33,965 bases of DNA from a virus: IMG/VR virus record IMGVR_UViG_3300028196_001335, positions 1-33,965 of that record; one strand, given 5' to 3'. The notes below the pieces were generated by a model. That model was not told the origin of the DNA and did not search any database. It saw only the letters and a list, made by a program, of their open reading frames with translations. Positions 7,626-30,142 of the stretch are shown piece after piece; position 1 is the stretch's first letter, and each line of letters begins with the position of its first letter. A program made the translations under genes and the position numbers.

Positions 7626-7879
7626 ATTATTACGCACTACACTGGAGTGATATTTTTGGTAATATGGGAGTACTATTGTTAGTAACCACTTACCTCTTAT
7701 TACAAACAGATAGAATCAACGCAAAAGGCTTTTGGTATAGCTTTAATAATGCAATGGTAGCAATATTGTTGTTTGTTAATCTATATTACAAACCTGTACT
7801 TGCCAATATTACCCTTGAGATATTTTGGTTAGGTATTAGCATATATGGACTTTACAAATGGTATAAGGCAAAACATTAA
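7619..7879 (+). CDS. small membrane protein, CBU_0592-like
   Basis: 86 residues starting at TTG 7619, overlapping the previous gene by 7 nt. Three hydrophobic stretches: MGVLLLVTTYLLLQ, MVAILLFVNLYY and LEIFWLGISIYGLY. The pattern (GxxLLLxxYxLL, then a middle helix with N, then W/L-rich IxGLY end) resembles the CBU_0592 family of small putative transporters, by eye. Its end overlaps the polymerase ATG by one base, so all three genes are co-translated. Confidence 0.7.
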   Translation: MVDYYALHWSDIFGNMGVLLLVTTYLLLQTDRINAKGFWYSFNNAMVAILLFVNLYYKPVLANITLEIFWLGISIYGLYKWYKAKH

Positions 7880-10521
7880 TGAGTTACGTAGACGGCATCA
7901 TTGATAGAGACAAAGATATAATTAATATTGTTGAGCGTGTTGGAGGTAAGCGTGTTTATAAACAGCTACCAGCACGTTATGTTTTTTATTATCCTGACGC
8001 AAAGGGTAAATTTAAAAGCATATGGAACGAACCATTAAGCCGCATTGCGTGTACTAATGGCAAAACCTTTGCAAGAGAGAAGAAGCTATATTCGCACAAA
8101 CAACTTTTTGAAAGCGATATGAATCCTGTGTTCCGCTGTTTGGCAGAAAACTATCTGAAAGCAGATGCACCGGAACTAAACATTGCATTTTTTGATATTG
8201 AGGTTGACTTTAACAAGGACATGGGCTTTGCGCCTCCAGAAGATCCTTTTAATCCAGTGACTGCAATTGCAGTACACCTTAGTTGGCTAAATCGTACAAT
8301 ATGTTTAGCAGTTGCACCCAAGACACTGGATCAAGAAACAGCACAAGCAATTTGTGAAAAGTTTCCAGACACCATGTTAATGAATAATGAAAAGGAACTA
8401 CTTAATACGTTTCTTGATCTTATTGATGACGCAGATGTAATAACTGGTTGGAACAGCGAAGGCTTTGATATTCCATACATTGTAAATCGTGTTAAGCGTC
8501 AGTTGGGTAAAGAACACACTAGACGTTTTTGTTTGTGGGACAAATATCCCAAAAGACGTGAGTATCTCAGCTATGGTAAAACACAAGAAACATTTGATAC
8601 AGTAGGGCGTGTACACTTGGACATGTTGCAACTGTATCGCAAGTATACATATCATGAAATGCACAGCTACAGTTTGGATGCTATTGCAGAGTATGAACTA
8701 GGCGAAACAAAGATTGAATATGAAGGCACACTGGATCAGTTGTACAACAATGACTTTGAAAAGTTTATTGGATACAACAGACAAGACGTTGACTTGCTGG
8801 TCAAACTGGAAAAGAAACTACAGTTTATTGACTTGGCAAACGTACTAGCACATGAAAACACAGTGCTTCTACAAACAACAATGGGTGCGGTTGCACAAAC
8901 AGATCAGGCGATTATTAATGCGGCACATGCACGTGGTATGCAGGTTCCAGACAAACGTAGTCATGAAGGCAATACACAGGCTGCAGGTGCATATGTTGCA
9001 ACTCCAGTAAAGGGTATGCATGAATGGCTAGCAAGTATGGATTTAAACAGTCTATATCCTAGTATTTTACGTGCAGGTAATATGAGTACGGAAACTATTG
9101 TTGGACAAGTGCGCCATGTGTTTACACGTGAAATGTTGGCTGACTTTAAAACTGTATCAGAGGCATGGGAGGGCAAGTTTGCTTGTCCAGAATACGAACT
9201 TGTTATGGACAAGGATCGTGAAACTATACTACATTTGGATTTTGAGGATGGAACAACACTGGATGCAACTGGTGCTGAAATATATGACTTGATATTCCTA
9301 AGTGGACAACCGTGGATCTTTAGTGCAAATGGTACTATATTCCATCATAACACCAAAGGTGTTATCCCTGGCTTACTGGAACAGTGGTACGCAGAACGTA
9401 AGATACTACAAAAGAATGCCAAAGAGCAACAAGGCGTAGATGCTGATAAGTTTGCGTTTTGGGATAAACGACAGTTGGTTAAGAAGATTAACTTGAACAG
9501 TTTGTATGGTGCGTTGCTAAATCCTGGATGTAGATTCTTTGATCAAAGACTGGGACAATCAACAACACTAACAGGCAGATGTATTGCCAGACACATGGCG
9601 GCAGAAGTTAATCGTGTTATTGAAGGTACTTATGATTACACTGGTAAAAGTATTATATATGGTGATACTGATTCCGTATACTTTAGTGCATATCCTATTT
9701 TAAAGCCACAGATTGACAGTGGAGAACTTGAATGGACAAAAGACAAAGTAACTGAATATTATGAAGCAGTATGTGAAGCGGCAAACGAAACGTTTCCAGG
9801 ATACATGAACCAAGCACACAATTGTCCAAGTGAATTTGGTAGTATTATTGCCGCCGCTAGAGAAATTGTAGGTGTTGCTGGTATCTTTATTAAAAAGAAA
9901 CGTTATGCTATCCTAGTGTATGATAACGAAGGTTATCGTGAAGATACTGATGGCAAACCAGGCAAAGTAAAAGCAATGGGCTTGGACTTGAAGCGTAGTG
10001 ATACGCCCAAGTTTATGCAAGAGTTTTTACATGAGCTACTGGTTATGGTGCTTACTGGTGTTGAAGAACAACCAGTACTCACACGTATCAAAGAGTTCAG
10101 AAAGCCGTTTCGTGAGAAACCTGGTTGGGAGAAAGGTACTCCCAAACGTGTTAACAACTTAACTAATCATACTGCAAAGTATGATAAAACTGGCAAGTGT
10201 GGTATTGGACATGCACTGGCCGCAATTAATTACAATAGGCTTCGCAAAATGAATAGTGATGCTTATAGTATGGAGATTACAGATGGTATGAAAACTATTG
10301 TCTGTAAGTTGAAAAGCAATCCGTTAAACATGACAAGTGTTGGTATACCCACAGATGAAAAGCGTATACCAGACTGGTTTAAGGAATTGCCTTTTGATGA
10401 CGATGCAATGGAGACTGCAATAATTACTAAAAAGATTGAAAACCTTTTGGGTGTGCTGAAGTGGGACTTAAAGAGTGCTCATGACAACAATACCTTTGGT
10501 GATTTATTTGATTTTGGATAG
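7879..10521 (+). CDS. 43: DNA polymerase, family B (T4 gp43-like)
   Basis: 880 residues, close to the 898 of T4 gp43. The replicative polymerase with 3'-5' proofreading. Exonuclease motifs: FFDIEVDF (Asp106/Glu108), TGWNSEGFDIPY and YNRQDVDLL (Asp303). Polymerase motifs: MDLNSLYPSI (Asp388), KKINLNSLYGA (535-545) and YGDTDSVYF with catalytic Asp596/Asp598. The last residues, NNTFGDLFDFG, resemble the clamp-binding tail of T4 gp43 (SLDFLFG), consistent with the gp45-like clamp encoded downstream. The start overlaps the upstream stop by one base. No intein or frameshift was seen. Confidence 0.97.
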   Translation: MSYVDGIIDRDKDIINIVERVGGKRVYKQLPARYVFYYPDAKGKFKSIWNEPLSRIACTNGKTFAREKKLYSHKQLFESDMNPVFRCLAENYLKADAPELNIAFFDIEVDFNKDMGFAPPEDPFNPVTAIAVHLSWLNRTICLAVAPKTLDQETAQAICEKFPDTMLMNNEKELLNTFLDLIDDADVITGWNSEGFDIPYIVNRVKRQLGKEHTRRFCLWDKYPKRREYLSYGKTQETFDTVGRVHLDMLQLYRKYTYHEMHSYSLDAIAEYELGETKIEYEGTLDQLYNNDFEKFIGYNRQDVDLLVKLEKKLQFIDLANVLAHENTVLLQTTMGAVAQTDQAIINAAHARGMQVPDKRSHEGNTQAAGAYVATPVKGMHEWLASMDLNSLYPSILRAGNMSTETIVGQVRHVFTREMLADFKTVSEAWEGKFACPEYELVMDKDRETILHLDFEDGTTLDATGAEIYDLIFLSGQPWIFSANGTIFHHNTKGVIPGLLEQWYAERKILQKNAKEQQGVDADKFAFWDKRQLVKKINLNSLYGALLNPGCRFFDQRLGQSTTLTGRCIARHMAAEVNRVIEGTYDYTGKSIIYGDTDSVYFSAYPILKPQIDSGELEWTKDKVTEYYEAVCEAANETFPGYMNQAHNCPSEFGSIIAAAREIVGVAGIFIKKKRYAILVYDNEGYREDTDGKPGKVKAMGLDLKRSDTPKFMQEFLHELLVMVLTGVEEQPVLTRIKEFRKPFREKPGWEKGTPKRVNNLTNHTAKYDKTGKCGIGHALAAINYNRLRKMNSDAYSMEITDGMKTIVCKLKSNPLNMTSVGIPTDEKRIPDWFKELPFDDDAMETAIITKKIENLLGVLKWDLKSAHDNNTFGDLFDFG

Positions 10522-23870: not shown

Positions 23871-24157
23871 AATTTATAAAAAAACAATTTGCTAAACTAA
23901 GACTCAAAGATCAAAAACTTGAGAAAGAATTGGCAAACATTGACGATGAACCTTGGGTCAAAGTTATCAATGTTTCAATGACTGATCCCAAAGATCCAAG
24001 TACTGGATTCTTTGAACTAGACTGGAACGATCAATTTGTTCAAAGTTTATATGATGCAGGATACAGTGGTCGCAATGGCGAAGAAGTAGTAGATCAATGG
24101 TTTAATGATTTATGTCGTGGAGTTATAAGCGATGAGTTCTCACAAGAAAACGAATAA
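23867..24157 (+). CDS. conserved hypothetical protein
   Basis: 96 residues, 4-nt overlap upstream, with ribosome site ggagg in the previous gene. A basic N-terminal helix (KKQFAKLRLKDQKLEKEL) is followed by a conserved-looking DDEPWVKVINVSM and then FFELDWNDQFVQSLYDAGY. Similar proteins occur in cyanophages; role unknown. Part of the unit that leads to the 5' nuclease. Confidence 0.7.
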   Translation: MKFIKKQFAKLRLKDQKLEKELANIDDEPWVKVINVSMTDPKDPSTGFFELDWNDQFVQSLYDAGYSGRNGEEVVDQWFNDLCRGVISDEFSQENE

Positions 24158-24368
24158 AGATTTGTGGAGTATAAGCCATAGTTATAAACTGACACCACAA
24201 AGTCAGAAATATTTCTATGAATACGAGCAGAATTCATTTGACAAACTTGCCCATCATGCTGTACAATTAGAGATGGAACTGCTTGATGACATCGACATTT
24301 GGGTCGATTTAATGGATGGACAATATCCTGAAGCTATGCAATTAATAAACGAGATAAGGAACAAATGA
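24132..24368 (+). CDS. small acidic hypothetical protein
   Basis: 78 residues, overlapping the gene before by 26 nt and the nuclease gene after by 4 nt. Aromatic and acidic, with KYFYEYEQNSFDKLAHHAV and MELLDDIDIWVDLMDG. No domain recognised. Coupling with the nuclease suggests joint expression but not a shared function. Confidence 0.65.
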   Translation: MSSHKKTNKDLWSISHSYKLTPQSQKYFYEYEQNSFDKLAHHAVQLEMELLDDIDIWVDLMDGQYPEAMQLINEIRNK

Positions 24369-25348
24369 CTTATATACTAGTAGATACCGCAAATATGTTT
24401 TTTCGAGCCCGCCATGTTGTACGTAGCGGCGATAATGATATTAAAATTGGTATGGCATATCACATTATGTTTAGTGCCATTAACAAAGCATGGCGTGACT
24501 TTGGTGGTACCCATGTAGTATTTTGTTTAGAAGGTCGCAGCTGGCGCAAGGATCATTATATTCCATACAAAGCAAATCGTGCTGTTGCACGTGCCGCGGC
24601 GACAGAGCAAGAGCAAGAAGAAGATCGTATGTTCTGGGAAGCGTTTGATGACTTTAAAGACTTTATTGATCAGAAGACTAACTGCACAGTATTACAACAT
24701 CAACAGTGTGAAGCAGATGACTTTATTGCCCGTTGGATACAGAATCATCCTGATGATGAACATGTTATTATTAGTAGTGACAGCGACTTTTATCAGTTAT
24801 TGAGTGAAAAAGTCACACAATATAATGGCATTAGTAACCAGCATATTAAGATTGATGGTATTGTAAACGACAAAGGTAAGCCTGTTATAGACAAGAAAAC
24901 TAAAGAGCAGAAGCAAATTGGTGATCCTGAATACTTGTTGTTTGAGAAATGTGTACGTGGCGATACTAGCGATAACATCTTTAGTGCGTACCCTGGTGTG
25001 CGTAAAAAAGGCACCAAGAACAAGATTGGTATACAGGAAGCATTTGCAGACAAAGAGTCCAAAGGGTTTAACTGGAATAACTTTATGCTACAACGTTGGA
25101 CAGATCATGAGGGTGTAGAACATCGTGTACTGGAAGACTATCAGCGTAATCGTGAATTGATTGACTTAACAGCACAACCGCAACCTATTAAAGATGCACT
25201 GGATGAAGTTATTACAACACAAGTTAACAAGACTCCAACTGGACAAGTTGGTATTAAGTTTATGAAGTTTTGTGGAAAGTATGATTTACAGAAGATCAGT
25301 GAGCATCCAACTGACCATGCAACTTACTTGAATGCAGGCTATGCGTAA
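24365..25348 (+). CDS. rnh: 5'-3' exonuclease / RNase H (FEN family, T4 Rnh-like)
   Basis: 327 residues, near T4 RNase H (305). It removes RNA primers and flaps during lagging-strand synthesis. PIN-like metal-site motifs: YILVDTANMFFRARH at the start, VVFCLEGRSWRKDHYIPYKANR (helical arch region), CEADDFIARW, VIISSDSDFYQL, and CVRGDTSDNIFSAYPGVRKKG, the helix-hairpin-helix-like DNA-binding region. All acidic ligands look intact. Overlaps the gene on each side. Confidence 0.93.
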   Translation: MTYILVDTANMFFRARHVVRSGDNDIKIGMAYHIMFSAINKAWRDFGGTHVVFCLEGRSWRKDHYIPYKANRAVARAAATEQEQEEDRMFWEAFDDFKDFIDQKTNCTVLQHQQCEADDFIARWIQNHPDDEHVIISSDSDFYQLLSEKVTQYNGISNQHIKIDGIVNDKGKPVIDKKTKEQKQIGDPEYLLFEKCVRGDTSDNIFSAYPGVRKKGTKNKIGIQEAFADKESKGFNWNNFMLQRWTDHEGVEHRVLEDYQRNRELIDLTAQPQPIKDALDEVITTQVNKTPTGQVGIKFMKFCGKYDLQKISEHPTDHATYLNAGYA

Positions 25349-25844
25349 CTTTACAGCTAAAAATATTATTAAAGACAAGTTCTGGATTGTTGAGCTTAAC
25401 GGAACCAATGTTGGTACAGTAAAGTTTAATGATTCAACTTATATCTATTTTAATAATGACACCAAAGAAACCATAGTTTATACTGAACAAGAGTTTGAAA
25501 ATCAGTTTAAAACAGTAAATAGTACTACAACGAAAAGTGTCTTTACAGATGTATACGGATATACTACCAACTGTGAAGAGGTATTCAACGTAAGGACTGA
25601 GGAAAACACACCTGTTTATACAAAAACAAGTACAAGTAGCAATTATTTTGCGGCAGGTTATTATGCAATTTATTTTCCATCTATCAAATGGAGTTCGGCA
25701 CACTGCCCACGATTAAAAACTTTAAAATCGTATCCTTTTATTGGTCCTTTTAAGACAGAAGAAGATGTCAATTTGGCAATGAAAAGGAAACGATATGAAG
25801 AAACTACTAATAGCAATAGCAGTAATACTACTATTACCCAATAG
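25341..25844 (+). CDS. conserved hypothetical protein
   Basis: 167 residues; ATG 25341 is taken because it has a purine-rich site close upstream and small overlap; an ATG 9 nt upstream is possible. It is beta-rich with FWIVELNGTNVGTVKFND, a Tyr/Phe-rich SSNYFAAGYYAIYFPSIKW, and CPRLKTLKSYPFIGPFKTEED. Resembles a marine phage family without known role. A 50-nt overlap with the next gene is unusually long here. Confidence 0.7.
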   Translation: MRNFTAKNIIKDKFWIVELNGTNVGTVKFNDSTYIYFNNDTKETIVYTEQEFENQFKTVNSTTTKSVFTDVYGYTTNCEEVFNVRTEENTPVYTKTSTSSNYFAAGYYAIYFPSIKWSSAHCPRLKTLKSYPFIGPFKTEEDVNLAMKRKRYEETTNSNSSNTTITQ

Positions 25845-26154
25845 TTTATTTGCACAGGAACCACCAAAATCAATACCTCTACCAATTATGATACAGTGTG
25901 GTCCAACTGATTTTACAATCAAACTACTGAAAGACAAATACAAAGAACATCCAATAGCACTGGGCGAAGGTCAGGTAATTACACCAGACGGAGATCCAGT
26001 ACGAGGACAAATGTTGTTTTGGTATGGTGAAGAAAACAAAACTTTTAGTGTAACTATCTCATTTGGTAAAAATGATTTTATGTCATGTCTTATCATGAAT
26101 GGCAATAATGTTAATGTGTTCTACAATCCAAATGCAGGTAAGGATCCCATGTAA
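25795..26154 (+). CDS. exported protein with signal peptide
   Basis: 119 residues. N-terminal signal peptide: KK, hydrophobic core LLIAIAVILLLP, and a probable signal peptidase I site after NSLFA (residue 20). The mature part includes IMIQCGPTDFTIKLL and EGQVITPDGDPVRGQMLFW, with two Cys that could form a disulfide in the periplasm. Similar short secreted proteins are seen in marine phages; possible periplasmic or superinfection-related role is speculative. Confidence 0.75.
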   Translation: MKKLLIAIAVILLLPNSLFAQEPPKSIPLPIMIQCGPTDFTIKLLKDKYKEHPIALGEGQVITPDGDPVRGQMLFWYGEENKTFSVTISFGKNDFMSCLIMNGNNVNVFYNPNAGKDPM

Positions 26155-26165
26155 TCTCATGTAAA

Positions 26166-26201
26166 CTACGTTGTTAATATAAATACATATAGACAACGTA
26201 G
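26166..26201 (+). promoter_or_regulatory. TATAAATA late-promoter box inside a 9-bp inverted repeat
   Basis: CTACGTTGT (26166-26174) and ACAACGTAG (26193-26201) are perfect inverted repeats. They enclose TATAAATA (26178-26185), the exact T4 late promoter core. The right arm runs directly into the ribosome site (taggaga) of the gene at 26210. The dyad could be a DNA operator, or a hairpin limiting ribosome access if transcribed from upstream. Confidence 0.5.
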
Positions 26202-26209
26202 GAGATCAC

Positions 26210-26512
26210 ATGGCTAGACCAAAACCAACAATTATTCTAGAACACACTGACAGCAAGACTTATCGCAGTGAGCAAATTTTACATGCAGATGCAATTTATG
26301 CAGTGTTTTATCAGGATTCACCCATTAACTTACGGAGCCTTAACAGTTTAGTAAATTATCCTGGACCAAAGTACAAAAAGGTCAGCTTTAGCAATAGCGG
26401 GCATGCATTTAACTTAGCAGAACGTATGAACAAAATGTTCAAATGCAAAGACTTTACTGTAGTGAAACTAACTCAGGGCGAAGTAATTGACGAAGACGAC
26501 ATCGATCCATGA
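26210..26512 (+). CDS. conserved T4-like phage hypothetical protein
   Basis: 100 residues, ribosome site taggaga. It begins ARPKPTIILEHTDSKTY and has beta-strand-rich AIYAVFYQDSPINLRSLN, then GPKYKKVSFSNSGHAFNLAE and an acidic end. It resembles a conserved cyanophage family of unknown role. The only gene in this stretch with an exact TATAAATA box upstream, so it may be expressed late. Confidence 0.72.
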   Translation: MARPKPTIILEHTDSKTYRSEQILHADAIYAVFYQDSPINLRSLNSLVNYPGPKYKKVSFSNSGHAFNLAERMNKMFKCKDFTVVKLTQGEVIDEDDIDP

Positions 26513-26834
26513 TCAAATAGTAACCTACTTAACAGACAAGTACGGCAAGAATGTTGACATGCGTCCACGTGACTTGTTTTATAATACCACTGGTAAAGGA
26601 CTACGCCTTACCAGACTTGGATATGAACTGTTAAAAAACGAATTCGACTGTTATCCACATCCAATCGAAAAAGAAATCAAAGTTAAAGTAAAACATATCC
26701 TTGCATTAGACGCAGAAATGCAATGGCCATATTATCTATCCAGTAAACAAATTGTATTATTCAGCGAGGATGACAGTGTCATTATGAAGCTCGTTGGAGG
26801 ATATGAAAACTGGATTGCCAGCGTCTCCAGTTAA
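26487..26834 (+). CDS. conserved T4-like phage hypothetical protein
   Basis: 115 residues from TTG 26487; no in-frame ATG precedes the conserved region, so a TTG start overlapping the upstream gene by 26 nt is chosen. KNVDMRPRDLFYNTTGKGLR and WPYYLSSKQIVLFSEDD match a pattern I recognise in cyanophage proteins of unknown function. Probably alpha/beta. Confidence 0.65.
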   Translation: MTKTTSIHDQIVTYLTDKYGKNVDMRPRDLFYNTTGKGLRLTRLGYELLKNEFDCYPHPIEKEIKVKVKHILALDAEMQWPYYLSSKQIVLFSEDDSVIMKLVGGYENWIASVSS

Positions 26835-26851
26835 AAAATTTAAAAAACCAC

Positions 26852-26880
26852 TTGACATTCCACCGTGTAACCACTATACT
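26852..26880 (+). promoter_or_regulatory. sigma70-type promoter
   Basis: TTGACA (26852-26857), 17-bp spacer, TATACT (26875-26880), 29 nt before a small membrane-protein gene with ribosome site caggagg. Located in the 75-nt gap after a stop codon. Likely starts the unit leading to the MoxR ATPase. Confidence 0.75.
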
Positions 26881-26909
26881 GTATAAGTAAAGCACAGGAG
26901 GATTGCCTA

Positions 26910-27092
26910 ATGATGGAAATATGGTTACTAGCTACAGCATTGATTTTTACAATTGTTGGATACGGCATGGGAAAACGCACAGGTCTCGAACTTGGTGTTG
27001 ACGGTACGTTATCAATGTTGGAAAAAGGACGCTATATCAAACTTACTACTCAATCCGATGGTGAAATAGTTATTGAAAAATCTGGAGAGTAG
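26910..27092 (+). CDS. small N-terminally anchored protein
   Basis: 60 residues; ATG ATG pair, first used. Residues about 4-20 are hydrophobic (IWLLATALIFTIVGYGM), followed by a soluble segment GTLSMLEKGRYIKLTTQSDG. It resembles small single-span proteins found in marine T4-like phages. First gene of a promoter-led unit. Function unknown. Confidence 0.7.
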   Translation: MMEIWLLATALIFTIVGYGMGKRTGLELGVDGTLSMLEKGRYIKLTTQSDGEIVIEKSGE

Positions 27093-27094
27093 TA

Positions 27095-27316
27095 ATGGTA
27101 AATTTTAAGTTAGAAGAACTAAGTCAAGAATTTGTACGTGGCCGTAAAAAAGTAGCTGACCCACAGACTATTGCAACGGCAACCAAATGGTATCGCTCAT
27201 TTACAGGTGGGCGTGGCAATGTAGGCACAGATGAAATTCTAGAACTTTATAAAATGTTAGAAAAAAGTGAAGAATTAAAGCAAAAAGTAGTTGACAAGCA
27301 AGACGTCTTACTGTAA
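27095..27316 (+). CDS. small hypothetical protein
   Basis: 73 residues, ATG 2 nt after the previous stop. Helical, with FVRGRKKVADPQTIATATKW, a Gly-rich turn GGRGNVGTDE and LELYKMLEKSEELKQKVV. No domain recognised. Its end overlaps the promoter of the ATPase gene. Confidence 0.68.
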   Translation: MVNFKLEELSQEFVRGRKKVADPQTIATATKWYRSFTGGRGNVGTDEILELYKMLEKSEELKQKVVDKQDVLL

Positions 27317-27319
27317 ACT
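27291..27319 (+). promoter_or_regulatory. probable promoter of the MoxR-type gene
   Basis: TTGACA (27291-27296), 17-bp spacer, TAAACT (27314-27319), preceded by TG one base earlier. The -10 matches consensus at four of six positions. It is followed by aaaggag and the ATG at 27353. Overlaps the end of the upstream gene. Confidence 0.5.
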
Positions 27320-27352
27320 ACAAGTATAAGTTAAACAAAAGGAGCCCATATC

Positions 27353-28459
27353 ATGGCAATGACAGAAACACAAAGTCGCACAGTACGTTTAAGTGAAGCC
27401 CGCAAGTATGTTAAGCATCATGCTAAAAAGAAACGTCCTATGATGATTTGGGGTCCTCCAGGAATTGGTAAATCGGATCTGATTGCCGGCGTTTGTAATG
27501 AATATGCAAACAGTCTGCTTATTGATGTACGTTTGCCGCTTTGGGAACCTACAGATATCAAAGGTATTCCATACTACAGTGCAAATGACAACACTATGAA
27601 ATGGGCGCCGCCCACAGAACTTCCTAGTGAAGAACTTGCCGCACAATATGATACTATCTTTTTGTTCTTGGACGAGCTTAATGGTGGAGCACCTGCTGTA
27701 CAAGCGGCTGCATATCAGCTTATCCTTAACCGCAAGGTTGGTACATACAAACTGCCAGACAATGTTGTAATTGTTGCCGCAGGTAACCGTGAGACTGACA
27801 AGGGTGTTACATATCGTATGCCCAAGCCACTTGCTAACCGTTTTGTACACTATGAAATCCGTGTTGACTTTGAAGATTGGTTGACTTGGGCTACTAACAA
27901 TGACATCAGTCCTGATGTTGTGGGTTACTTAACGTTTGCAAAGTCAGACTTGTATAACTTTGATCCATCCAGCAATGAGCGTTCGTTTGCTACACCACGT
28001 AGTTGGGCGTTTGTTAGTGAATTGTTGGACGATGTTGAAGACTTTACTGACGAAGAAATTACTGACATGGTGTCAGGTGCAATTGGCGAAGGTACTGCGC
28101 TCAAGTTTAAAGCACACCGTGCTGTTGCCAGCAAGTTGCCTAACCCAACATTGATCCTTACTGGCGAAGTTACTACGCTAAAAACAAAAGAGATCAGCGC
28201 AATGTACTCACTAAGCACTAGTATGGCATATGAGCTTAAAGCAGTGTATGACCAAATTGGACGTGATGTTACCAAAGAAGAATTTGATGGCATGCTGGAC
28301 AATGTACTGGGCTTTATGATGAAAAACTTTGATCCAGAGATGATCATTATGGCAACCCGCCTTGTGTTTGTACAGTATGGTGTTACCGCCAACTTGCGTA
28401 AAATGAGTAACTGGCCTGAGTTTATGAAAAACTATGGTCACTTAATCAAAGAAGCCTAA
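27353..28459 (+). CDS. MoxR-type AAA+ ATPase
   Basis: 368 residues. Walker A GPPGIGKS (34-41), Walker B IFLFLDELN (102-109), sensor-like VVIVAAGNRETD and arginine-finger region PLANRFVHYEI, then MoxR-like ATPRSWAFVSELL in the lid. MoxR ATPases act as chaperones or metal-insertion machines together with a VWA-domain protein; one lies two genes downstream (28895-30142), a classic pair. Ribosome site aaggag. Client unknown. Such pairs also occur in cyanophages. Confidence 0.9.
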   Translation: MAMTETQSRTVRLSEARKYVKHHAKKKRPMMIWGPPGIGKSDLIAGVCNEYANSLLIDVRLPLWEPTDIKGIPYYSANDNTMKWAPPTELPSEELAAQYDTIFLFLDELNGGAPAVQAAAYQLILNRKVGTYKLPDNVVIVAAGNRETDKGVTYRMPKPLANRFVHYEIRVDFEDWLTWATNNDISPDVVGYLTFAKSDLYNFDPSSNERSFATPRSWAFVSELLDDVEDFTDEEITDMVSGAIGEGTALKFKAHRAVASKLPNPTLILTGEVTTLKTKEISAMYSLSTSMAYELKAVYDQIGRDVTKEEFDGMLDNVLGFMMKNFDPEMIIMATRLVFVQYGVTANLRKMSNWPEFMKNYGHLIKEA

Positions 28460-28478
28460 TTTCAAAAGATAAGGTAAT

Positions 28479-28499
28479 AGGGCCAGAGATGGCCCTTTA
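28479..28499 (+). terminator. hairpin terminator after the MoxR-type gene
   Basis: AGGGCCA (28479-28485), GAGA tetraloop, TGGCCCT (28490-28496), then TTATTATATT. A stable 7-bp GC-rich stem with a weak T-rich tail. Probably terminates or reduces transcription into the next gene; its flank still carries the next gene's ribosome site. Confidence 0.6.
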
Positions 28500-28520
28500 T
28501 TATATTGTAGTGGAGGATAT

Positions 28521-28838
28521 ATGGCAGAACCATTAATTAACATTAAAAGTAGTATTAGGCAAAGTATTAACAACCGTCTGTATACCAGTAGGTTGTGTTT
28601 TGAGTATTTGGGTACTCCCAATCCCAAAAGTCATCATATTAAGCAGTGGAAAAATACCTGGGAGACTAAGTATAGTGTAGTTATTAATAGTAGAACGAAA
28701 GCTCGTCAGACGCTCAAAACAGCTGATATACCCACCTTACTGTATGATATGCGTTACTTGGAGGATGGCACTAAGGTAGCTGTTTTCTTTAGAGATGAAG
28801 ACTTAGTTTTATTTAAATTAATGTATGATAACACTTGA
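28521..28838 (+). CDS. small hypothetical protein
   Basis: 105 residues, ribosome site ggagg. Basic first half (SIRQSINNRLYTSRLCFEY, HHIKQWKNTWETKYSVVINS), then AVFFRDEDLVLFKLMYD at the end, an alternating strand pattern. No known domain. It is located between the MoxR-type ATPase and its VWA partner and ends just before a promoter. Confidence 0.7.
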   Translation: MAEPLINIKSSIRQSINNRLYTSRLCFEYLGTPNPKSHHIKQWKNTWETKYSVVINSRTKARQTLKTADIPTLLYDMRYLEDGTKVAVFFRDEDLVLFKLMYDNT

Positions 28839-28862
28839 CATTAACATCAAATAGTATATAAT
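28835..28862 (+). promoter_or_regulatory. sigma70-type promoter of the VWA gene
   Basis: TTGACA (28835-28840), 16-bp spacer, TATAAT (28857-28862), both consensus. The -35 overlaps the upstream stop codon. The VWA gene starts 32 nt after the -10 element. Confidence 0.8.
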
Positions 28863-28894
28863 GATACATGTAATAACAGAAAAGGTTGCAAGTA

Positions 28895-30142
28895 ATGTCT
28901 ACATTCACTACTACTAGTAAAGAAGCAGAAAACAAACTTATTCAAGCTCGTGTACGCATGCTTATGCGGCATCCGTTCTTTGGACAACTTGCACTTCGTT
29001 TAAAGCTAGTACAAGCAGATGATTGGTGTCCCACAGCCGCGGTTGATGGGCGTAACTTCTTTTATAATAGTGAATTTGTAAACTCGCTTGATCCAGATGA
29101 GGTGGTGTTTTTAGTAGGACATGAACTTGGGCATTGTATCTTTGAACACTTTTTACGTCGTGAAGAACGCCAACCAAAGTTATGGAATATGGCAGGCGAC
29201 TATGTTATTAACTATATTCTAAAACGTGAGCGTATTGGCGCCGTTATTACCAAAGTACAAATACTGTTGGATAACAAGTATGCAGACTGGACAACAGAAG
29301 ATGTGTATGATGACATTTTAAAAAGCGGTGCCGCTCCTAAAGAAACACTGGATGTACATTTGGATCTTGGTGGAGAAGGACAAGACGGTAAAAATGGTCA
29401 AGGTCCTGGCGATAAAGACGGCAAAGGCAAAGGTAAGCCTAGCCCACTAAGCAGTGAAGAGCGCAAGAAGCTACAGGATGAGCTTAAAGAAGCAATGATC
29501 CAAGCCTCACAAGGCGCAGGTGCTGGTAATGTACCGGCTGAAATACAACGTATGATTAATACACTTACTGAGCCTAAAATGAACTGGCGTCAGTTTATAC
29601 GTACTAGCATTGAAAGTAATATCAAGAATGACTTTACATTCCAACGTCCTAACCGCAAAGGCTGGCACACAGGTGCAATACTTCCAGGTATGGAACGTGA
29701 CCAAATGATTGACATTGCACTTGGTATTGATACAAGTGGTAGTATTGACCAGAGTATGCTTACAGACTTTGTGAGTGAAGTTGCTGGTATTATGGATCAG
29801 TTTAGTGAATACCGTATACGCATTTGGCAGTTTGATACCAATGTATACAGTTTTGATGAGTTTACACATGATGACGGTCGCGATATGCGAGAGTATGAAA
29901 TTACTGGTGGAGGCGGTACTGAGTTTACTGTCAACTGGCAATTTATGAAAGATCAAGGCATCGAGCCTGATCAGTTTATTATGTTTACAGATGGTATGCC
30001 CTGGGGTAGTTGGGGCGATCCAGAATATTGTGATACGATGTTTTTAATTCACACTCGATTTAGTGGGCGTGATATTGAGGCACCGTTTGGTACAACCGTT
30101 CAGTATGAACAAGCGACTAGCCAAATGAAAAGGGCCGCTTAG
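28895..30142 (+). CDS. VWA-domain protein with metallopeptidase-like N-terminus
   Basis: 415 residues from ATG 28895 (a TTG lies 9 nt upstream). N-terminal part has FLVGHELGHCIFEH, an HExxH zinc motif at 76-80 with a further His85, as in the DUF2201-type putative metallopeptidases. A Gly/Lys/Asp linker (about 150-190, GEGQDGKNGQGPGDKDGKGK) follows. The C-terminal VWA domain has the MIDAS start GIDTSGSID (Asp279, Ser281, Ser283) and a later FTDGMPW. Works with the MoxR-type ATPase, probably as adaptor or protease-like effector. Whether the zinc site is active is unknown. Confidence 0.88.
   Translation: MSTFTTTSKEAENKLIQARVRMLMRHPFFGQLALRLKLVQADDWCPTAAVDGRNFFYNSEFVNSLDPDEVVFLVGHELGHCIFEHFLRREERQPKLWNMAGDYVINYILKRERIGAVITKVQILLDNKYADWTTEDVYDDILKSGAAPKETLDVHLDLGGEGQDGKNGQGPGDKDGKGKGKPSPLSSEERKKLQDELKEAMIQASQGAGAGNVPAEIQRMINTLTEPKMNWRQFIRTSIESNIKNDFTFQRPNRKGWHTGAILPGMERDQMIDIALGIDTSGSIDQSMLTDFVSEVAGIMDQFSEYRIRIWQFDTNVYSFDEFTHDDGRDMREYEITGGGGTEFTVNWQFMKDQGIEPDQFIMFTDGMPWGSWGDPEYCDTMFLIHTRFSGRDIEAPFGTTVQYEQATSQMKRAA

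What the first reader, a model, noticed from the sequence alone, without database searches (positions are those of the whole stretch)
26166..26201. Late promoter box flanked by a perfect inverted repeat next to a ribosome site
An exact TATAAATA sits between 9-bp arms CTACGTTGT/ACAACGTAG; the right arm touches the ribosome site. A read-through RNA could fold and hide the ribosome site, while an RNA started at the late promoter would lack the left arm and be translated. This would make translation depend on which promoter is used, as in some T4 genes.
Basis: partly seen in the sequence, partly recalled or inferred. Interest (0 to 1): 0.5.

Follow-up and report, generated by a model that had tools for sequence, protein, structure and literature searches.

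The report
Late-promoter hairpin hiding a ribosome site
A large virus of bacteria appears to keep one of its genes silent early in infection by folding the early messenger RNA over the gene's start signal, while a promoter placed inside the fold later makes a shorter, readable message; many related viruses keep such a fold although its letters differ.

Summary
At 26147-26213 a read-through RNA is predicted to fold into a two-part hairpin covering the ribosome site (AGGAG) and the AUG of a 100-aa orphan gene (X, 26210-26512). The window's only TATAAATA lies inside it. An RNA started by the T4 rule near 26191 lacks the left side; the cost of opening the start region falls from 22-24 to 1.5-3 kcal/mol. 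Among relatives of X, 175 of 180 distinct leaders have a late-type box. In 34 of 68 leader clusters the cost falls by at least 6 kcal/mol (43 of 68 counting shorter read-through RNAs); 20 of 68 representatives show little or none. Arm letters differ while pairing is kept: 11 of 14 pairs change on both sides in a 14-sequence alignment. Two geometries occur: arm upstream of the box, or between box and +1. Other late-box genes seldom show it (6 of 93, against 43 of 75 X leaders). gp55-like sigma genes were found in 11 of 20 related records. This is the T4 e/49/I-TevI trick, hence a new member of a known kind, on an uncharacterised gene near the MoxR-vWA pair of jumbo phages. No transcript start was measured.

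The parts
26178..26185 (+). Late-promoter box TATAAATA (T4 gp55 type)
   Evidence: exact match, only one in window; TAAATA 14-65 nt upstream of start in 175 of 180 distinct X leaders; boxes of this type precede structural genes of PA5oct
26166..26174 (+). Left arm CTACGTTGT of the hairpin; lies 5' of the predicted late start
   Evidence: covariation
26193..26201 (+). Right arm ACAACGTAG; its last two bases are the first two of the ribosome site
   Evidence: covariation
26200..26204 (+). Ribosome site AGGAG of gene X
   Evidence: sequence
26147..26158 (+). 5' side of the outer stem; overlaps the stop codon of the upstream ORF (26152-26154)
   Evidence: MFE structure; kept in L002, absent in L003
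26202..26213 (+). 3' side of the outer stem; covers GAG of the ribosome site and the AUG
   Evidence: MFE structure
26191..26191 (+). Predicted late +1 (6th base after the box, T4 rule from memory; not measured)
   Evidence: inference; for the window the result is the same with +1 at the 4th to 8th base
26210..26512 (+). Gene X, 100-aa conserved orphan protein
25795..26154 (+). Upstream ORF (119 aa), same strand; expected to carry read-through RNA
   Evidence: the nearest + strand terminator-like site upstream in the scan is 25235-25251, inside the exonuclease ORF
26487..26834 (+). Downstream ORF Y overlapping the end of X (phrog_15638, unknown function; TTG start from the mechanical ORF list)
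27353..28459 (+). MoxR-type AAA ATPase
   Evidence: phrog_1297 ATPase, E 1.6e-94; MoxR name by comparison with the pair described in PMC7824862
28886..30142 (+). Metallopeptidase-vWA partner protein
   Evidence: PF13203 and PF09967; PMC7824862

Best explanation
A promoter-choice switch on translation. Early and middle transcripts that read into gene X from upstream carry the whole leader, fold, and bury the ribosome site and AUG, so X is not made. Once the phage late sigma factor (gp55 type) works, RNA starts a few bases after TATAAATA; this RNA lacks the left arm, leaves the ribosome site open and is translated. Shown here: the box, the arms, the predicted fold, its conservation by compensating change, and gp55-like genes in relatives. 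Inferred: that read-through RNA exists, that the late start is at about 26191, and that the fold blocks ribosomes in the cell.
For: Window: opening energy of the start region 22.3 (read-through) against 1.5 kcal/mol (late), with shuffled upstream DNA 6.6 +/- 2.2 and 0 of 100 shuffles as high; 23.6 against 3.1 with other flank lengths. Family: in 34 of 68 leader clusters the median share of chimeras with foreign 5' parts that reach the native value is 6% or less (about 4 clusters expected), and in 57 of 68 it is 50% or less. A 14-sequence alignment keeps 83.1% of cells paired against 69.2% shuffled and at most 51.3% slid; 11 of 14 pairs change on both sides against 7.1 shuffled; covariation 0.548 against 0.295 shuffled and at most 0.283 slid. 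In the second geometry the energy falls from 10.7 (RNA from the box) to 3.3 (RNA from the 6th base after it), mean of the 56 leaders of cluster 13. Over 68 cluster representatives the left side pairs with the start region more than in chimeras mainly at -33 to -11 and -4 to -1 relative to late +1, and less than in chimeras further upstream. X leaders with a drop of 6 or more: 43 of 75; other late-box genes: 6 of 93. T4 genes known for this behave alike: e 14.2, I-TevII 13.4, 49 12.7, 26 12.5, segB 12.5, I-TevI 9.0. gp55-family hits in 11 of 20 records; 7 of the 9 misses are records of 108 kb or less. None of 39 hairpin leaders has a strong terminator within 250 nt upstream of the box against 4 of 20 without hairpin (exploratory).
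Against: No transcript data. 20 of 68 cluster representatives show a drop below 4 kcal/mol, including the isolates SCTP-2, Phosso and PA5oct; PA5oct has a 7-bp helix over its ribosome site but its drop is only 1.6 to 4.6 depending on the RNA length used. L003, a near relative of the window, has one broken pair and no outer stem. In cluster 13 several leaders (L036, L042, L056, L068, L080) are more open in full read-through form than with shuffled upstream DNA: 95 to 100 of 100 shuffles reach or exceed them. One measure goes the other way: further standard pair types 15 against 17.5 shuffled (496 of 500 shuffles as high); the number of pairs changed on both sides (2) is no more than shuffles give (265 of 500). 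My metric misses two T4 genes named as positives in the reviews, soc (1.6) and I-TevIII (-1.2), and gives 6 to 8 to T4 53, 51, 24 and alt. gp33 (PF16805) was found in 0 of 20 records; that search rang nowhere, so it shows nothing. Clusters are not independent in descent.
Confidence: 0.8

Rival explanations
1. The inverted repeat is a DNA operator: a dimeric protein, perhaps X itself, binds it and blocks the late promoter, as I-TevI does on its own promoter.
For: Perfect DNA inverted repeat round the late box; I-TevI autorepression over a late promoter is reviewed in PMC2988022 (passages).
Against: The arms differ in sequence from cluster to cluster and lie either upstream of the box or between box and +1; G-U pairs occur at several positions; the excess pairing on the 3' side is strongest just before the AUG and spans the ribosome-site region. 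A DNA operator predicts conserved letters.
Confidence: 0.07
2. The hairpin is a binding site for an RNA-binding translational repressor (RegA, gp32 or gp43 style), not a promoter-choice switch.
For: T4 has such repressors (PMC3014915, passages).
Against: No common loop: the loop holds the promoter box in one geometry and the ribosome-site region in the other. The late RNA would lack the site, so a repressor could act only on read-through RNA.
Confidence: 0.05
3. Chance: an AT-rich leader happens to fold.
For: 5 perfect 9-bp inverted repeats in the window against 3.8 in shuffles.
Against: 4 of 2000 local shuffles place such arms round the box; compensating changes across relatives; 34 of 68 clusters beat chimeras.
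Confidence: 0.03
4. Transcription terminator or RNase processing site at the operon joint.
For: Stem-loop between two genes.
Against: No T tract after the stem; not among the terminator-like sites of the scan; in relatives the 3' arm of the best helix, sought only in the start region, reaches the ribosome site or AUG.
Confidence: 0.03

Closest known systems
T4 gene e (lysozyme) leader
   Same: Late promoter in the DNA coding for the 5' strand of an RBS-sequestering stem; long early RNA silent, late RNA translated (PMC3014915, passages read). Same behaviour in my metric, drop 14.2.
   Different: X has no sign of being a lysis gene in the family and fold searches made here; different phage group; arms unrelated.
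T4 gene 49 and I-TevI leaders
   Same: Left arm begins in or just after the late box, so the late start trims it: the geometry of clusters 13 and 20 here (drops 12.7 and 9.0).
   Different: The window itself uses the other geometry, with the arm upstream of the box.
T4 I-TevII and segB, Aeh1 mobE
   Same: RBS hairpin with a late promoter (PMC2988022, passages read); drops in my metric: I-TevII 13.4, segB 12.5; mobE was not scored here.
   Different: Those are homing endonucleases; X is a conserved gene without a known domain.

Membership tests
T4-type late-promoter/RBS-hairpin switch | gp55-type late box (TATAAATA) directly upstream of the gene | tested here: met
   175 of 180 distinct relatives; PA5oct box use
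T4-type late-promoter/RBS-hairpin switch | Read-through RNA folds over ribosome site and/or AUG | tested here: met
   prediction; compensating changes
T4-type late-promoter/RBS-hairpin switch | Late RNA lacks the 5' strand of the fold | tested here: inconclusive
   met if +1 follows the T4 spacing; +1 not measured
T4-type late-promoter/RBS-hairpin switch | Early or middle RNA really reads through the gene | not testable with these tools
   upstream ORF on the same strand, no strong terminator within 250 nt; no RNA data
T4-type late-promoter/RBS-hairpin switch | Phage encodes a gp55-type late sigma factor | tested here: met
   in relatives: 11 of 20 records; the window record itself, a fragment, has no hit
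T4-type late-promoter/RBS-hairpin switch | Translation measured low from long RNA and high from late RNA | not testable with these tools
   needs a reporter
Autorepressor operator over a late promoter (I-TevI style) | Conserved DNA letters in the operator | tested here: not met
   arm letters change between clusters with pairing kept

The most novel reading that the evidence does not exclude
The function of the leader, not its sequence, is conserved across a large clade of jumbo and T4-like phages: the hairpin has been rebuilt many times with different arms and in two geometries round a fixed late box. Where it is missing, some phages put a terminator upstream instead. That would mean strong selection against early synthesis of X, which would make X an unrecognised late factor (virion assembly with the MoxR-vWA pair, or a protein harmful to early replication).
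Probability: 0.5. Interest if true: 0.6.

Novelty: new member of a known kind. Interest (0 to 1): 0.5.

Why it matters
The T4 logic is documented for a handful of genes. Here one orphan gene shows it in about half of 68 leader clusters, with many different arms, so the rule can be tested by comparison, and it marks X as a gene whose timing matters. It also suggests a sequence signature for finding time-restricted genes in uncultured jumbo phages.

Tried and rejected
Function of X: no Pfam match over the cut-off, no PHROG match at 1e-3, best PDB sequence match E 0.2, no PDB fold match with E at or below 0.001 and two uncharacterised viral proteins by fold. X as a homologue of T4 DsbA, suggested by its place near RNase H, was rejected (hhalign probability 0.3, E 0.21). 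Rfam: 4 weak matches in 25500-27500, none over its gathering score and none at the hairpin. The gp33 search is uninformative. Near DNA match of 24000-29000 in the phage collection: none.

Limits of the counts. The shuffle control (76 distinct leaders; 25 with 5 or fewer of 100 shuffles as high) keeps the box-to-start stretch fixed and therefore cannot see the second geometry; it was followed by chimeras. In one search the PA5oct X gene (L090) was counted among 'other' genes; its drop there is 4.6, so the counts at 6 are unchanged. One search used at most 3 leaders per cluster (99 of 175; 54 of these 99 have a drop of 6 or more); the five leaders without a box at 14-65 nt were left out. The 180 leaders are what remained of 309 records with a mapped start after dropping repeats and leaders under 70 nt. 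The alignment for holds 14 leaders that I chose as alignable; that for holds the 56 leaders of cluster 13. Clusters were made by shared 6-mers, not by a tree. A repeated CGTA-type element 20-23 nt before the box start and about 11 nt after it (61 of 175 leaders have at least one copy) may be a middle promoter; left open.

Literature: the T4 logic is in print (PMC3014915, PMC2988022; passages read). I saw no description of it for this gene or clade in the listings of searches, which cover open-licence PMC papers only; the PA5oct transcriptome paper, which I recall exists, was not seen.

Full report
WHAT IS THERE. The window is a 33,965-base virus record of a T4-like phage: DNA polymerase at 7879-10521 and an ATPase (named MoxR-type by comparison with PMC7824862) at 27353-28459, a 5'-3' exonuclease at 24365-25348 and a metallopeptidase-vWA protein at 28886-30142. 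The predicted fold of read-through RNA is larger: a 10-bp stem (26166-26175 with 26192-26201), a 4-bp inner stem that uses part of the box, and an outer 11-bp stem with one 1x1 mismatch that covers GAG of the ribosome site and the AUG. Arms like these round the box came up in 4 of 2000 local shuffles, although a 9-bp inverted repeat somewhere in the window is not unusual.

THE GENE. Thirty columns are invariant in 68 aligned proteins, from the window and IMG/VR. A structure model (mean pLDDT 85.8) has no PDB match at E 0.001. In PA5oct and Phosso an annotated ATPase follows X after four genes and one gene; in Atu_ph07 the next annotated gene is ASV44729.1; in SCTP-2 the following genes are annotated only as hypothetical. 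PMC7824862 (passages read) names ASV44729.1 as MoxR and ASV44728.2 as its vWA partner, finds the pair in group 2.2 jumbo phages and proposes a role in virion assembly.

THE BOX IS A LATE PROMOTER. Relatives of X have TAAATA 14-65 nt upstream of the start in 175 of 180 distinct leaders; of the other five, three have it closer to the start, one has it further upstream and one has none in 90 nt. In 250 of 287 kb of PA5oct, 37 of 98 boxes of the [GTA]ATAAATA type lie upstream of an ORF with a ribosome site; they point to 35 distinct starts, of which 19 are genes annotated as structural, tail, neck, sheath or baseplate proteins by my count, and one is X. A gp55-family sigma factor is found in 11 of 20 records tested; of the nine misses two are records over 140 kb and seven are 108 kb or less and probably fragments. 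The cyanophage review gives NATAAATA as the late promoter sequence of S-PM2 (PMC2984593, passages read).

THE FOLD IS KEPT WHILE ITS LETTERS CHANGE. In an alignment of 14 leaders chosen for alignability, 83.1% of cells pair, against 69.2% when 3' letters are shuffled and 32.8-51.3% when the partner is slid; 11 of 14 pairs have changes on both sides (7.1 shuffled); the covariation score is 0.548 against 0.295; the number of further pair types is not raised (15 against 17.5). Part of this rests on one deep split (7 and 7 sequences). In 56 leaders of cluster 13, 94.8% of cells pair against 92.8% shuffled, with 14 cells changed on both sides against 5.2, but only 2 pairs changed on both sides, no more than shuffles give; that set varies little and is weaker evidence. 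Between clusters the best helices have different letters, for example CUACGUUGUU/GACAACGUAG, UCUCCGUAU/AUACGGAGA, AUAAUUUUCCU/AGGAGAAUUAU and UAUGUUUAAUCU/AGAUUAAACAUA; that search looked only for helices between DNA upstream of the late start and the start region.

THE LATE START REMOVES THE FOLD. I measured the free energy needed to open -16 to +3 in read-through RNA and in RNA from the predicted late start. Window: 22.3 and 1.5 kcal/mol. Mean over 68 clusters: 9.3 and 3.0. Replacing the 5' part by that of X leaders from other clusters gives a mean of 5.5 where native gives 9.5 (99 leaders). 34 of 68 clusters reach a median chimera share at or below 0.06 (about 4 expected), and 34 of 68 show a median drop of 6 or more; 43 of 68 if shorter read-through forms count. 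There are two geometries. In the window, RNA beginning five bases before the box is already largely open (4.7 against 3.1). In clusters 13 and 20 the left arm lies between box and +1, so RNA from the box is closed (10.7 and 9.6) and RNA from the 6th base open (3.3 and 4.2). T4 genes 49 and I-TevI have this second geometry (my reading of the leaders).

SPECIFICITY AND CONTROLS. Among late-box genes of the window, L002-L085 and the PA5oct pieces, a drop of 6 or more occurs in 43 of 75 X leaders and 6 of 93 others (Mann-Whitney p 7.6e-13, sequences not independent). Among the others, a tail-fibre-like gene (L061, Mtd_N domain) and a PA5oct gene of unknown function (start 135020) have full hairpins of the same kind. 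Of 39 T4 genes looked at, 20 had a box and were scored; known cases score high except soc and I-TevIII, and 53, 51, 24 and alt score 6 to 8. Of 39 cluster representatives with the hairpin none has a strong terminator within 250 nt upstream of the box; of 20 without, 4 have, PA5oct among them (Fisher p 0.011, exploratory, one test after seeing PA5oct).

AGAINST. There is no transcript or protein timing. 20 of 68 cluster representatives show a drop below 4 kcal/mol. L003 breaks one pair. In part of cluster 13 the upstream DNA makes the full read-through RNA more open than shuffled DNA does, so there the silent RNA may be one that starts just upstream of the box (51 of 56 leaders are at least 4 kcal/mol more closed from five bases before the box than from the late start); a repeated CGTA-type element 20-23 nt before the box could be its promoter. 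The T4 spacing of +1 is recalled, not measured here.

CONCLUSION. The finding is very probably a real regulatory leader. The most likely mechanism is the T4 one, read-through RNA silent and late RNA translated. What I did not find described is its conservation by function on an uncharacterised gene across a large phage group.

Noticed in passing
L030, L034, L041, L045, L048, L073 (box 16 nt before the start); L136, L138, L142 (box closer still): The late box lies so close to the start codon that late mRNA would have a leader of only a few bases or none, with no ribosome site visible in the L030 type; translation of leaderless late mRNA is possible.
   Followed up: partly
L061 from 6910; similar leaders in L042, L047, L052, L060, L065, L068, L069, L080: A tail-fibre-like gene with an Mtd_N domain (tested for L061 and L042 only) has a late box; in L061 it has a full hairpin over the ribosome site (drop 14.2), weaker in the similar leaders (1.7 to 4.9).
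   Followed up: partly
L088 35020 (PA5oct 135020): A PA5oct gene of unknown function has GTCTCCGT/ACGGAGAC arms round its late box, the right arm covering the ribosome site.
   Followed up: no
X leaders, 20-23 nt before the box start and about 11 nt after it; also L010 9670, L012 9111, L019 9423, L023 9038: A repeated element of the form CGTA..TAA(T/C), which reads GTATATAAT before another small gene in the four loci named, may be a middle-promoter -10 box.
   Followed up: partly
PA5oct 78710 and 78780: Two divergent late boxes form an inverted repeat between a structural gene and a hypothetical gene.
   Followed up: no
window 26852-26880 and 27291-27319: Two good sigma-70-like promoters (TTGACA-17-TATACT before the 60-aa ORF at 26910, TTGACA-17-TAAACT just before the ATPase), suggesting that the genes after X and Y have early promoters of their own.
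   Followed up: no
window 4736: A second late-like box (GATAAATA) stands before a 279-aa ORF, without a strong hairpin (drop 2.2).
   Followed up: no
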